Positions 29,977 through 33,412 of a stretch of DNA of 64,000 bases are shown in pieces. Both the position numbers and the translations under genes were made by a program. The DNA is taken from assembly GCF_013284245.2 (NCBI RefSeq), contig NZ_CP085876.1, positions 4,385,001 through 4,449,000 on the forward strand, written 5' to 3'. Below the pieces are notes generated by a model. That model made no database searches. It was given only the letters and a program-made list of their open reading frames with translations, and had not been told where the DNA came from. Numbering within the stretch: the stretch's first letter is position 1; the number at the start of each line of letters is the position of its first letter. The stretch is from Brevibacillus sp. DP1.3A (lineage in GTDB: Bacteria > Bacillota > Bacilli > Brevibacillales > Brevibacillaceae).

Positions 29977-31017
29977 TCAAAATGAACATCCGCAGCCACG
30001 CCCTCGTCTATGACCCCGTCTACGTCCGCAATTGCATCCGGCCGAGGAGCTACTGCCACCCGAAGATGAAGATGATGAGCCCCGACCAAAGGAACTGCTA
30101 CCGTCATTCCATAATTGACAACGGTCATGATAATGATGCATTCTCCGTTCATGGTGCTTGTAATGTCTGCGGTATTCCATGTATTTGCGGCGATTTTCAC
30201 CATGCTCCTCGCATTTGTGGCGGAAGTACTGCATCCGATCCATATGGAACTGGAATTTGAACAAGTACATCTCCAGATCCCTTCCTATGTTCTCATTCGG
30301 TCGCGCATTCGGCCTGACATTCGGTCTGATATTTGGTCTAATATTTGGTCTGATATTCGGTCTTAGATTTGGCATCATGTTTGGACTTTCATTCGGCCGC
30401 ACATTTGGTCTGACATTTGGTCTTACATTTGGCCTCATGTTTGGACTTTCGTTTGGCCTTACGTTCGGTCTGACATTTGGTCTCATGTTTGGACTTTCAT
30501 TCGGTCGCACGTTTGGTCTCATGTTTGGACTCTCATTCGGTCGCACGTTTGGTCTCACATTGGGTCTGACATTTGGCATCATGTTTGGACTCTCATTTGG
30601 CCTTACATTCGGTAAAGTGTTAGGCATAGGGTTTGCGGGCATCCGGTTCGGTGGCATTGGCATTGGATTCGACGGTTTGAGGTTTGGTGGCATCGGATTT
30701 GGAGGCATTGGATTGGACGGCTTGAGATTTGGTGGCATGGGATTCGCTGGCATCCGATTTGGCGGCATTACGTTTGGCACGTTCGGGTTAGCCAAATTGG
30801 GAGCTGGCATGATCGGTTTTTGCGGCATTGGGCGAGCAGGAATAGAATGATTCGGATTGATTGGACTTTCCGACTTGGGCTTTTCAGGAGAAGGCTTCAT
30901 AGGTGACGGCATCGATGGAGACGGCAATGGCATCGCTGAAGAAGGCGGTTTCGGCATTTCTTTAGGACGCCTTGGGAGTGCGGTAGGCATAGGCGGCATC
31001 TTACGTCGCTTTTCCAC
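29977..31017 (-). CDS. PN-repeat, proline-rich coat-like protein
   Basis: A 346-residue protein of unusual composition. Residues 1-70 are proline/methionine/serine-rich; 75-130 repeat PMPPN and NLKPSNP; 130-245 are an almost perfect 4-residue period, xRPN (NVRPNVRPNESPNM ... NIRPNIRPN). A distinct domain follows at about 250-315, rich in Tyr, His, Arg and Met (MYLFKFQFHMDRMQYF; YRRHYKHHERRMHHYH), then a Ser/Gly run and a CNCGRRRGHRRGRGCGC tail. There is no signal peptide. Tyr, His, Cys and Arg richness is common in cross-linked spore coat or exosporium proteins, so that is my best guess. The GTG start has only a weak upstream AAAGG; an ATG seven codons on is possible. Confidence 0.75.
   Translation of the reverse strand: MEKRRKMPPMPTALPRRPKEMPKPPSSAMPLPSPSMPSPMKPSPEKPKSESPINPNHSIPARPMPQKPIMPAPNLANPNVPNVMPPNRMPANPMPPNLKPSNPMPPNPMPPNLKPSNPMPMPPNRMPANPMPNTLPNVRPNESPNMMPNVRPNVRPNVRPNESPNMRPNVRPNESPNMRPNVRPNVRPNESPNMRPNVRPNVRPNVRPNESPNMMPNLRPNIRPNIRPNIRPNVRPNARPNENIGRDLEMYLFKFQFHMDRMQYFRHKCEEHGENRRKYMEYRRHYKHHERRMHHYHDRCQLWNDGSSSFGRGSSSSSSGGSSSSAGCNCGRRRGHRRGRGCGCSF
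30280..30790. repeat. In-gene tandem repeat, 12-bp base period
   Basis: This stretch encodes the xRPN/PNxP part of the repeat protein. The 12-bp unit (minus strand: CCNAATGTCAGA and variants) is grouped into higher-order units of 24-48 bp. The plus strand stays open through it (TFGLTFGLMFGLSFG-type reading), an artefact of the repeat. Confidence 0.85.
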
Positions 31018-31151
31018 GGAATTCTACACGTCCTTTCGGATGAACTAACACAGTACATGGTATGACATTTATCCAACTCGAGAGACGACTCTCGCCCAGT
31101 TTGAAAAAATGGACTAAGCCCGTTTTTTGCTCTCTAGGGAAGCCGCCGTGA

Positions 31152-31189
31152 CAAGATCATCTTGACTGCACGTAGGCATTTGATACAAT
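31152..31189 (+). promoter_or_regulatory. hutH leader promoter with an overlapping inverted repeat
   Basis: TTGACT (31162-31167), a 16-bp spacer and TACAAT (31184-31189) give a good sigma-A promoter. CAAGAT-C-ATCTTG (31152-31164) is a perfect inverted repeat overlapping the -35, a likely repressor or activator site. Initiation near 31196 leaves a leader of about 180 bases. The ~130 bp further left hold no gene; CATACCAT on the minus strand (31057-31064) may be a mother-cell -10 for the repeat protein. Confidence 0.65.
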
Positions 31190-31247
31190 GATAACAATAG
31201 CTAAAATAATCAGACAGTTGCAAATGAACGAAAGTGAGGAAGAACGT

Positions 31248-31322
31248 ATGCCGCGACAAATGCAGGCTTACACGTTTTCATCCAATCACATACATGCTTT
31301 CGAGCGAGGGGTTAGGATATGA
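31248..31322 (+). CDS. 24-residue leader peptide upstream of hutH
   Basis: The frame MPRQMQAYTFSSNHIHAFER-GVRI starts at an ATG with GTGAGGAAG about 6 bases upstream. Its last seven codons form the 5' arm of the terminator at 31302-31344 and its TGA lies in the terminator loop. A ribosome completing this ORF would therefore mask the terminator. It contains two histidines (NHIH), which is not enough to claim histidine-specific stalling. It could be a real leader peptide controlling hutH or a small independent peptide gene. Confidence 0.55.
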   Translation: MPRQMQAYTFSSNHIHAFERGVRI

Positions 31323-31344
31323 TGTCCTAACCCCTCGCTCTTTT
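31302..31344 (+). terminator. Attenuator-type terminator inside the hutH leader
   Basis: GAGCGAGGGGTTAGGA (31302-31317) pairs perfectly over 16 bp with TCCTAACCCCTCGCTC (31325-31340), loop TATGATG, followed by TTTT. It lies between the promoter and the hutH ribosome site, 34 bases before the hutH ATG, so hutH expression needs read-through or antitermination. Confidence 0.85.
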
Positions 31345-31377
31345 CGTTCTCTGCTCTGCTAAAGGAGGAAATTACTG

Positions 31378-32892
31378 ATGAATCAGCAAGTAAACGTTGT
31401 AAAAGTAGATGGGGATCAATTGCGTATCGAAGATGTTGTTTCCATTGCAAGAAGCGCCACCCACGTCCAATTGACCGAAGAAGCATTGCATCGTGTTCGT
31501 GCTTCACGTGCCATGGTGGAGCGAATGGTATCGCAGCAGGAAGTCGTATACGGAATCACCACTGGCTTCGGAAAATTCTCCGATGTCATGATCCACGACG
31601 AGGACGTAAGCAAGCTACAAGAAAATTTGATTATGAGTCATGCTTGCGGGATGGGCGACCCTTATGCCGTTGAAGTTGTCCGTGCGATGATGGCTTTGCG
31701 CATCAATGCATTGGCAAAGGGTTATTCGGGAATACGAGAAGAAACATTGCTTCAGCTTGTAGAACTATGCAATCGAGGGGTTCATCCGATTATTCCTCAA
31801 CAAGGTTCCCTTGGTGCAAGCGGCGACCTGGCCCCTCTCGCTCATATGGTACTGGTCATGCTCGGTAAAGGTGAAGCGCTCGTCAATGGCAAGCGGCTAT
31901 CCGGAAAAGAAGCACTGAATGAAGTGGGGCTTTCCCCTATTCGACTGGAGGCTAAAGAAGGTCTGGCTCTGATTAACGGGACACAGGCGATGACTGCACA
32001 GCTTTGCCTCGCCTTGTATGATTCGCGAGTTCTGCTTGAAAGCGCTGAATTGATTGCGGCGATGACGATTGAAGCGCTGCGTGGAATTCCAAAAGCCTTT
32101 GATCCACAGCTCCATCTCGTCCGCCCGCATCCAGGACAGCAGGAGTCAGCAAAGCGCTTGCTCCAGCACTTATCCGGCAGCAAACGTACAACTGCGCAGG
32201 GTGAGCTACGCGTCCAAGATCCATACAGCCTTCGTTGCCTCCCGCAAGTGCATGGTGCAACTCGTGATACGCTGGAGTATGTATGGACTACGGTAACACG
32301 CGAATGCAATAGCGTCACCGATAACCCTATTCTTTTCACAGAAACAGGCGACGTCATCTCCGGCGGGAATTTCCATGGTCAGCCAATGGCATTCGCAGCT
32401 GATTTTCTTGCCATTGCCATAGCTGAGCTGGCAAATATTTCCGAAAGACGCACAGAACGTCTCGTCAACCCACAGCTAAGTGGTCTACCCGGATTCTTAA
32501 CCGAAAATGGCGGACTCCATTCTGGATTTATGATTACGCAATATGTAGCCGCTTCCATTGTTTCTGAAAACAAAGTGCTCTGCCATCCCGCGTCGGTCGA
32601 TTCGATTCCGTCATCTGCCAATCAGGAGGACCATGTCAGCATGGGAACGACTTCTGCTCGCAAGCTTCGCACGATCGTATCGAATGTCACCAAGGTGCTT
32701 GCCATTGAATATTTGGCAGCAGCACAAGCTATCGATTTTGGCTCGGGAGATCTCGGGACAGGTACAGCGCGAGCCTATGAGCAGTTGCGCCGGGTGATTC
32801 CCCGCCTGCATGAAGACCGCGAAATGCATCCTGATCTCGTAAAGGCAGAAGAGCTGATCCAGCAAGGGACTCTCGCGTTTGTGACAGAATAA
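31378..32892 (+). CDS. hutH: Histidine ammonia-lyase
   Basis: A 504-residue enzyme that converts histidine to urocanate and ammonia, the first step of histidine use. The self-forming MIO cofactor tripeptide Ala-Ser-Gly is seen in GSLGASGDLAPLAHM (147-149). Other active-site blocks are VYGITTGFGKFSDV, NGTQAMTAQL, QDPYSLRCLPQVHGATRD, NSVTDNPILF and NFHGQPMAFAADF. AAAGGAGG precedes the ATG. The other hut genes (hutU, hutI, hutG, hutP) are not nearby: a DCC protein follows. Regulation is probably at the leader terminator. Confidence 0.97.
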   Translation: MNQQVNVVKVDGDQLRIEDVVSIARSATHVQLTEEALHRVRASRAMVERMVSQQEVVYGITTGFGKFSDVMIHDEDVSKLQENLIMSHACGMGDPYAVEVVRAMMALRINALAKGYSGIREETLLQLVELCNRGVHPIIPQQGSLGASGDLAPLAHMVLVMLGKGEALVNGKRLSGKEALNEVGLSPIRLEAKEGLALINGTQAMTAQLCLALYDSRVLLESAELIAAMTIEALRGIPKAFDPQLHLVRPHPGQQESAKRLLQHLSGSKRTTAQGELRVQDPYSLRCLPQVHGATRDTLEYVWTTVTRECNSVTDNPILFTETGDVISGGNFHGQPMAFAADFLAIAIAELANISERRTERLVNPQLSGLPGFLTENGGLHSGFMITQYVAASIVSENKVLCHPASVDSIPSSANQEDHVSMGTTSARKLRTIVSNVTKVLAIEYLAAAQAIDFGSGDLGTGTARAYEQLRRVIPRLHEDREMHPDLVKAEELIQQGTLAFVTE

Positions 32893-32986
32893 TCGTTCGT
32901 GTATAGGAAGCATTGTCTTTCTCTGTTATGATGGAGCTAAGGATAAGCATTTAGAGCAAAACACTTGAAGTATGGAGGGCTGTCTC

Positions 32987-33412
32987 ATGAAAGCAGGCAG
33001 AGAACTAGACCATCCTGAGTACCTGTTACTGTTTGATGGGGTTTGTCATCTGTGCCACGGTGCTGTACAGTTTATTTTGAAGCGTGATCCGCATGGGCAC
33101 ATTCACTTTGCATCCTTACAGTCAGAGAGAGCACAGGAAATTTTGTCTCATTACAAGTATCAGGAAAAAGACTTGTCATCCGTGGTCTTTATCGCCAACG
33201 GACAGCTATATACAAAATCGGATGCGATCTTGCACGTCGGTCGCAAGCTTCAAGGTGGATGGCCTCTGTTGTCAAACGTAGCTCGGCTCATCCCTAGACC
33301 TGTCCGCAATCCGATTTATGATTGGGTCGCGAGAAATCGCTATCGGTGGATGGGCAAAGCTGAACAATGCATGCTTCCTACCCCGCAGATCAGATCCCGC
33401 TTTTTGGATTAA
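32987..33412 (+). CDS. DCC-family (DUF393) thiol-disulfide oxidoreductase-like protein
   Basis: A 141-residue protein with the family motif D-G-V-C-x-x-C at the start (LLLFDGVCHLCHGAVQFIL, about 14-32) and a thioredoxin-like continuation (IHFASLQSERAQEIL; SSVVFIANGQLYTKSDAIL) ending with the family's tryptophan/tyrosine block YDWVARNRYRWMGKAEQC. Members are predicted oxidoreductases; few have been tested. The ATG at 32987 has GGAGGG 8 bases upstream, which also rules out the ATG at 32972 lying within that site. It is 94 bp after hutH without a clear terminator between them, so read-through is possible. Confidence 0.88.
   Translation: MKAGRELDHPEYLLLFDGVCHLCHGAVQFILKRDPHGHIHFASLQSERAQEILSHYKYQEKDLSSVVFIANGQLYTKSDAILHVGRKLQGGWPLLSNVARLIPRPVRNPIYDWVARNRYRWMGKAEQCMLPTPQIRSRFLD

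What the first reader, a model, noticed from the sequence alone, without database searches (positions are those of the whole stretch)
31152..31400. hutH is preceded by a leader peptide whose stop codon lies in the loop of an intrinsic terminator
The sequence shows, in order: a TTGACT-16-TACAAT promoter with an inverted repeat over the -35, a 24-codon ORF with a good ribosome site, a perfect 16-bp terminator stem whose 5' arm is made of the last codons of that ORF, and the hutH ribosome site. Translation to the stop codon would hide the 5' arm and allow read-through; absence of translation would terminate. B. subtilis uses the HutP protein on a leader terminator, but with hutP in the same operon; here no hutP is nearby. 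So this may be a different, ribosome-coupled or protein-coupled attenuator.
Basis: partly seen in the sequence, partly recalled or inferred. Interest (0 to 1): 0.75.

Follow-up and report, generated by a model that had tools for sequence, protein, structure and literature searches.

The report
Leader peptide overlapping hutH terminator
Bacteria of the Brevibacillus family appear to switch on their histidine-degrading gene by having a ribosome translate a tiny, often histidine-rich leader frame right into a transcription stop signal, which would keep the stop from forming; this has not been tested in cells.

Summary
A promoter precedes a 24-codon ORF (31248-31322). Its last codons form the 5' arm of a 16-bp terminator (31302-31340), and its UGA lies in the loop, ahead of hutH.

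A covariance model finds this leader upstream of hutH in 38 of 39 family genomes; the exception lacks the close orthologue. HutP is absent from 26 of 26 genus genomes.

In 39 of 39 leaders the ORF is open up to the hairpin; in the 14 divergent ones the other frames have earlier stops in 9 and 10. The first stop lies inside the hairpin in 30 of 39. Seventeen loops hold a stop, always in the ORF's frame, although that frame changed at least seven times on the hutH tree. The peptide drifts neutrally. Outside the window's genus His is the most enriched residue (27 of 203 codons, 6.6 expected); within it, it is not.

Best reading: translation into the hairpin causes read-through (pyrBI-like), gated by charged tRNA-His in many lineages, with polarity opposite to classical attenuators. 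Polarity and histidine response are inferred, not shown.

The parts
31162..31189 (+). sigma-A type promoter TTGACT-16-TACAAT of hutH
   Evidence: pattern matches in 24 of 25 genus leaders
31226..31234 (+). GAACGAAAG, possible 5' strand of a long-range helix (P0) with the terminator tail
   Evidence: in the predicted fold; 87% of cells paired in 23 sequences but only 1 of 8 pairs changes on both sides; weak
31236..31239 (+). Shine-Dalgarno core GAGG of the leader ORF
31242..31277 (+). hairpin P1 (GAACGT with ACGTTT) around the leader start codon; seen in the window's genus
   Evidence: 3 of 6 pairs with a change on both sides, 79% of cells paired; not recognisable by eye in most leaders
31248..31322 (+). 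leader ORF, 24 codons plus UGA, MPRQMQAYTFSSNHIHAFERGVRI
   Evidence: no stop before the hairpin in 39 of 39 leaders
31287..31295 (+). His codons CAC and CAU (codons 14 and 16, with AUA between), 15 and 9 nt upstream of the terminator arm
31302..31340 (+). intrinsic terminator hairpin, 16 bp, loop 31318-31324, with the leader stop codon 31320-31322 in the loop
   Evidence: 12 core pairs, 97% of cells paired, 4 pairs with a change on both sides
31340..31349 (+). tail CTTTTCGTTC: U-tract and possible 3' strand of helix P0
31361..31368 (+). hutH Shine-Dalgarno AAAGGAGG
31378..32892 (+). hutH, histidine ammonia-lyase, 504 aa
   Evidence: TIGR01225 711 bits over a cut-off of 539

Best explanation
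A ribosome-controlled transcription attenuator of the pyrBI type with inverted amino-acid logic. RNA polymerase starts from the promoter at 31162-31189, and a ribosome starts on the leader ORF. If it translates through, it sits on the 5' arm and loop of the terminator (at the stop codon in or near the loop) while the 3' arm emerges; the hairpin cannot form and polymerase reads on into hutH. If the leader is not translated, or the ribosome stalls at the His codons upstream of the arm because charged tRNA-His is scarce, the hairpin is free and transcription ends after about 150 nt. hutH would thus be made only when histidine is plentiful enough to be burned. Shown (by comparison): the ORF is a real frame, it always reaches the hairpin and in most leaders ends inside it, the hairpin is conserved as a structure, and His codons are enriched in most lineages outside the window's genus. 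Inferred: the polarity, the timing of polymerase and ribosome, and the histidine response.
For: Element found upstream of hutH in 38 of 39 family genomes. SD-like stretch plus ATG and an ORF without a stop before the hairpin in 39 of 39; in the 14 divergent leaders the two other frames have an earlier stop in 9 and 10 of 14. First stop inside the hairpin in 30 of 39; the ATG-to-stem distance changes reading frame at least 7 times on the hutH tree, yet the stop codons in 17 of 39 loops are all in the ORF's frame (0 of 56 other-frame cases among 28 leaders). L016 against L018: 2 extra bases in the ORF and 1 extra in the loop bring the UAG back in frame. His 27 of 203 codons in 12 divergent representatives, 6.6 expected, the most enriched of 20 residues (z 8.2); other frames 3 of 194 and 8 of 193. 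One leader per deep lineage: 22 of 171, expected 5.4, 0 of 5000 shuffles. 39 of 57 His codons lie 13 nt or more upstream of the arm, so a ribosome stalled there would leave the hairpin free (footprint recalled). No shared antiterminator: across 19 representatives the 5' arm pairs upstream with mean probability 0.44 against 0.50 for shuffled upstream sequence, and in 12 non-genus leaders the predicted partners lie in different places. In E. coli, moving a stop codon to 5 bp before a terminator cut termination from about 90% to under 10%, and this needed translation; biosynthetic attenuators keep the terminator more than 20 bp from the leader gene (PMC4824070, passages). No HutP in 26 of 26 genus genomes.
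Against: Within the window's genus His is not enriched over other frames (29 of 456 codons; 22 of 446 and 35 of 431 in the others; 7 of 136 against 5.1 expected in 8 lineages). Nine of 39 leaders have no His codon. Sixteen of 57 His codons are 6-12 nt and 2 under 6 nt from the arm, so a stalled ribosome would touch the stem base; this includes the window's second His. Nine of 39 ORFs run past the hairpin; in 2 of 39 the stop lies in the 5' arm. The frame-tracking test has only 3 independent pairs (all agree, p 0.25). [quoted passage not shown] this leader is shorter than that and no pause is shown. In the 12 non-genus leaders, where His is rich, arm pairing is not below control: above it in 7 of 12, with up to 14 pairs, so private antiterminators are not excluded there. 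Start codons of the 13 family leaders were picked by hand after their frames had been read; in L150 and L157 the choice matters. Sensing charged tRNA-His reports sufficiency, not excess.
Confidence: 0.55

Rival explanations
1. Translation-gated but not histidine-specific: the leader only reports whether it is being initiated and translated (growth, ribosome supply, or opening of hairpin P1 over its start), and His codons are a relic in the window's genus.
For: In the genus His codons are not enriched and 7 of 25 leaders have none, while the ORF and its overlap with the hairpin persist. P1 covers the SD-AUG stretch: mean unpaired 0.16 in L007, 0.16-0.63 in the 7 genus representatives, with a change on both sides in 3 of 6 pairs.
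Against: His enrichment in the other lineages; one or two His codons in 18 of 25 genus leaders.
Confidence: 0.22
2. Protein-controlled attenuator: an unknown histidine-binding protein or other factor acts on the terminator or on the conserved stretch CACGTTTTGCCAATCACATA, and the ORF is incidental.
For: High nucleotide conservation of the stretch and of the stem sequence inside the genus while the peptide drifts (8 non-synonymous and 2 synonymous changes among nine close species, 155 and 52 possible). HutP does this in B. subtilis (PMC7430163, passages).
Against: An incidental ORF would hardly stay open in 39 of 39, put loop stops only in its own frame, or be rich in His. No second strong copy of the element in any genome searched.
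Confidence: 0.13
3. Classical polarity: a ribosome stalled at the His codons blocks the stem base, or frees an antiterminator, and hutH is turned on by histidine shortage.
For: 18 of 57 His codons are within 12 nt of the arm; in 7 of 12 non-genus leaders the arm pairs upstream more than shuffled control.
Against: 39 of 57 His codons are further away; no shared antiterminator partner; turning on histidine breakdown in shortage makes little sense; an unhindered ribosome would run into the terminator anyway.
Confidence: 0.07
4. Nascent-peptide sensing of free histidine, as TnaC senses tryptophan (recalled).
For: Catabolic gene and a short leader with its stop at the switch.
Against: No conserved peptide, near-neutral substitution pattern, shifting frame.
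Confidence: 0.03

Closest known systems
E. coli pyrBI (pyrL) attenuator
   Same: The terminator lies inside the leader gene, and a closely coupled ribosome prevents it (PMC4824070 and PMC5021804, passages).
   Different: pyrBI responds to UTP (through polymerase pausing, recalled) and serves biosynthesis, with a 135-bp leader gene; here the gene is catabolic, the leader ORF 75 nt, and the likely sensor charged tRNA-His.
Amino-acid biosynthetic leader-peptide attenuators (trp, his; Listeria ilv Rli60)
   Same: Short ORF with codons of the relevant amino acid before a terminator (PMC5864092, passages).
   Different: Those use an antiterminator, keep the terminator clear of the leader gene, and turn on in shortage.
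Histidine leader peptides before hisZ and a hisS paralogue in bacilli
   Same: His-codon leader ORF plus terminator in Firmicutes (PMC2965389, passages).
   Different: Other genes (hisS family), called 'regular' leader peptides there; overlap with the terminator is not described in the passages seen.
HutP antitermination of the B. subtilis hut operon
   Same: Regulated terminator of hut genes, histidine as activator (PMC7430163, passages).
   Different: Protein plus NAG repeats; HutP is absent here. Other Bacilli show a different leader before hutH (15 of 30 by a loose pattern); in one of them, L186 (G046), hutP lies just upstream of hutH.
bmrB and yxjB leaders of B. subtilis
   Same: Leader translation controls a terminator in a Bacillus; for yxjB no overlapping antiterminator was found either (PMC4191407 and PMC6851288, passages).
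   Different: They respond to antibiotics, and ribosome stalling turns the gene on.

Membership tests
pyrBI-type translation-coupled attenuator | leader ORF extends into the terminator hairpin | tested here: met
   39 of 39 leaders
pyrBI-type translation-coupled attenuator | no antiterminator | tested here: inconclusive
   none in the RNAalifold consensus; arm pairing below control in 7 of 7 genus representatives but above it in 7 of 12 others, with no shared partner there
pyrBI-type translation-coupled attenuator | polymerase pause that keeps ribosome and polymerase together | not testable with these tools
   needs in vitro transcription or NET-seq
pyrBI-type translation-coupled attenuator | translation of the leader raises read-through | not testable with these tools
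   no expression data
amino-acid biosynthetic leader attenuator | codons of the regulated amino acid enriched in the leader | tested here: inconclusive
   strong in 12 divergent representatives, z 8.2; no enrichment in the window's genus
amino-acid biosynthetic leader attenuator | conserved competing antiterminator hairpin | tested here: not met
   no shared partner for the 5' arm; private ones in single leaders not excluded
amino-acid biosynthetic leader attenuator | terminator clear of the leader gene (more than 20 bp, PMC4824070) | tested here: not met
   first stop inside the hairpin in 30 of 39, beyond it in 9
HutP-dependent antitermination | hutP gene (PF09021) | tested here: not met
   0 of 26 genus genomes, 1 of 10 other family genomes searched
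HutP-dependent antitermination | two clusters of NAG repeats | not tested
   no scan with a site model was made
TnaC-like arrest peptide | conserved arrest residues | tested here: not met
   peptides differ, near-neutral substitution
T-box or other Rfam leader | match to an Rfam model | tested here: not met
   no match at E 0.1 in 10 leader loci; two sub-threshold, irrelevant matches

The most novel reading that the evidence does not exclude
A family-wide amino-acid-codon attenuator of reversed polarity: a His-codon leader whose full translation into a lone terminator hairpin turns on a histidine-degrading gene when tRNA-His is charged, having taken the place of HutP in the Brevibacillus family, with the place where translation ends, not the peptide or the frame, as the selected trait.
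Probability: 0.4. Interest if true: 0.78.

Novelty: new variant of a known kind. Interest (0 to 1): 0.62.

Why it matters
The codon-reading attenuators that I know of serve biosynthesis and turn on in shortage (recalled; examples). One that reads the same codons to turn on breakdown, with a single hairpin, would show how simply the polarity can be inverted. It would also be a test case for ribosome-polymerase coupling over a very short leader in a Bacillota, and it would explain how hutH is controlled in a family that mostly lacks HutP.

Tried and rejected
Peptide conservation as the selected trait: rejected. Regulon idea: the covariance model and the hairpin pattern give no second strong match; the two secondary hits that I read (L132, L133) look like gene-end terminators. 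hutU: I read its upstream in the window genome and 4 relatives. In three of these (L134, L119, L120) a GGCACC...GGTGCC terminator-like hairpin stands there; frames cross it, but without a clear SD and with 0-1 His, so not the same element. Wider spread: of 69 more distant hutH loci, 20 with a terminator-like hairpin within 350 nt, two have an ORF with an SD-like stretch overlapping it: L108 (Ornithinibacillus caprae, 19 codons, MFIIHHQRKPIKNIKGGLV, stop in the hairpin, 2 His) and L114 (GTG start, 41 codons, no His). None of 30 relatives of the L108 hutH showed it by the same kind of scan, so L108 may be chance. Helix P0 is suggestive but purine-pyrimidine rich and poorly covarying. Frame tracking on the tree: only 3 independent pairs. 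A cre-like pattern near the promoter is convincing in L028-L030 only. Papers: ten searches (two of them returned nothing; open-access PMC only); no title, abstract start or passage that I saw describes a hutH leader peptide.

Full report
What is there. The window carries hutH (31378-32892; TIGR01225), followed on the same strand by a DCC1-like oxidoreductase gene (32972-33412). hutU lies elsewhere in the genome, about 2.3 Mb away by coordinates. Upstream of hutH are, in order, a promoter (31162-31189), a leader ORF with its SD (31236-31239; 31248-31322), a 16-bp terminator (31302-31340) whose loop holds the ORF's UGA, and the hutH SD (31361-31368). The name Brevibacillus rests on record titles of close relatives, such as B. 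formosus with 99% identical HutH.

Conservation. 26 of 26 genus genomes have a HutH match; 25 have the close orthologue, and G023 has only a 54% relative. Alignment of the 25 upstream regions shows the leader ATG invariant, an SD-like stretch before it, and the hairpin kept. In a 23-sequence alignment the hairpin core has 97% of cells paired and 4 of 12 pairs with changes on both sides. A covariance model finds one strong match per genome in 25 of 26 genus genomes and in 38 of 39 family genomes, 7 of 7 genera. The positions are just upstream of hutH (for G060). These searches scored only the best 83-125 candidates of the first look per genome, so a weak second copy could be missed.

Is the ORF real? 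I assembled 39 distinct leaders: 25 of the genus, L045 of B. migulae, and 13 of other genera of the family. L043 and L044 are the same loci as L148 and L147 and were dropped from the 39; they are among the 28. From the chosen ATG no in-frame stop precedes the hairpin in 39 of 39. In the other two frames an earlier stop occurs in 6 and 6 of the 25 genus leaders, and in 9 and 10 of the 14 others. Start codons of the 13 were picked by hand after I had read their frames. In L150 I took the second of two ATGs; from the first the frame is also open but runs past the hairpin and has 1 His instead of 3. In L157 the first ATG was used; the second would give 0 His instead of 1 and a stop just after the loop (frame 2).

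Where does it stop? The first stop lies in the hairpin in 30 of 39: 17 in the loop, 2 in the 5' arm, 11 in the first bases of the 3' arm. Nine run past: five end at the UAA just before the hutH SD (L019, L020, L030, L031, L147) and four run to or into hutH (L013, L017, L027, L157). The ATG-to-stem distance changes reading frame at least 7 times on the best hutH tree, which has several weak forks. Yet among 28 leaders 17 loops hold a stop in the ORF frame and none of the 56 other-frame cases does. L016 and its relative L018 differ by two bases in the ORF and one in the loop, which together keep the UAG in frame. With only 3 independent pairs on the tree, all in agreement, the formal test cannot reach significance (p 0.25).

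The peptide is not what is selected: among the nine closest species 8 changes are non-synonymous and 2 synonymous, against 155 and 52 possible, and frameshifts between species are common.

Histidine codons. In 12 representatives outside the genus (under 75% identical to one another) His makes up 27 of 203 codons (6.6 expected from composition, z 8.2, the most enriched of the twenty; Arg next, z 3.2), with 3 of 194 and 8 of 193 in the other frames. One leader per deep lineage gives 22 of 171 against 5.4, and without the two richest 14 of 140 against 4.3, with 0 of 5000 shuffles as high in either. In the genus there is no enrichment, though 18 of 25 leaders have one or two His codons; the window has CAC-AUA-CAU with the His codons 15 and 9 nt before the arm. 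Nine of the 39 leaders have none.

Polarity. A ribosome stalled at most of these codons (39 of 57 at 13 nt or more from the arm) would leave the hairpin free; a footprint of about 12 nt ahead of the A site is recalled knowledge. A ribosome at the stop would cover the 5' arm and loop. Across 19 representatives the 5' arm does not pair upstream more than shuffled sequence does (0.44 against 0.50): below control in 7 of 7 genus leaders, but above in 7 of the 12 others, where single leaders can form up to 14 such pairs at differing places. So there is no shared antiterminator, but private ones are possible. The simplest reading is: translated means read-through, stalled or untranslated means termination. 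This agrees with measurements in E. coli, where a stop codon a few bases before a terminator nearly abolished termination in a translation-dependent way, and with the remark there that biosynthetic attenuators keep the terminator clear of the leader gene. [quoted passage not shown] Polarity, coupling and the histidine response remain inferences.

Relation to HutP. HutP is missing from 26 of 26 genus genomes; of 10 other family genomes one (G030) has it, near a second, 57% hutH copy. More distant Bacilli show another leader type before hutH, with AGCCCATAG and a GGGGGCTAT hairpin (a loose pattern in 15 of 30 loci). In L186 (G046) hutP lies just upstream of hutH, so this type is probably HutP-controlled; site and binding were not tested.

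Judgement. The finding is real and its ribosome-coupled reading is well supported by comparison. It would work like pyrBI, but differs in signal, gene class and polarity of the amino-acid response; hence a new variant of a known kind. My ten paper searches turned up no account of it, within an open-access library only.

Noticed in passing
window 29977-31017, minus strand: A 346-codon ORF of low-complexity repeats (RPNVRPNESPNM, PPNPMPPN) with a His/Cys-rich end and no Pfam match; it diverges from hutH. A stretch between the two genes, CACAGTACATGGTATGACAT (31049-31068), recurs with little change in most plus-strand genus loci printed.
   Followed up: no
L108 2850-3000 (Ornithinibacillus caprae): An unrelated hutH leader with a His-His ORF whose stop falls in a terminator hairpin, a possible independent case of the same design; not seen in 30 relatives.
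   Followed up: partly
L028, L029, L030 promoters: cre-like sites (for example TGATAACGTTTTCA) just upstream of the hutH -35 in these three, suggesting added CcpA control there (motif recalled).
   Followed up: no
L027 leader: The leader ORF is open through the terminator and ends at ATGA overlapping the hutH start, as if translationally coupled.
   Followed up: no
L075, L081, L092, L087 upstream of hutH: A recurring leader with GCCCATAG and a long GGGGGCTA terminator in several Bacilli, probably of the HutP type; no Rfam search was made on these four.
   Followed up: partly
window 31349-31368: CUCUGCUCUGCUAAAGGAGG before hutH is nearly invariant, and RNAalifold pairs its CUCU end with the SD, a possible translational layer.
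   Followed up: no
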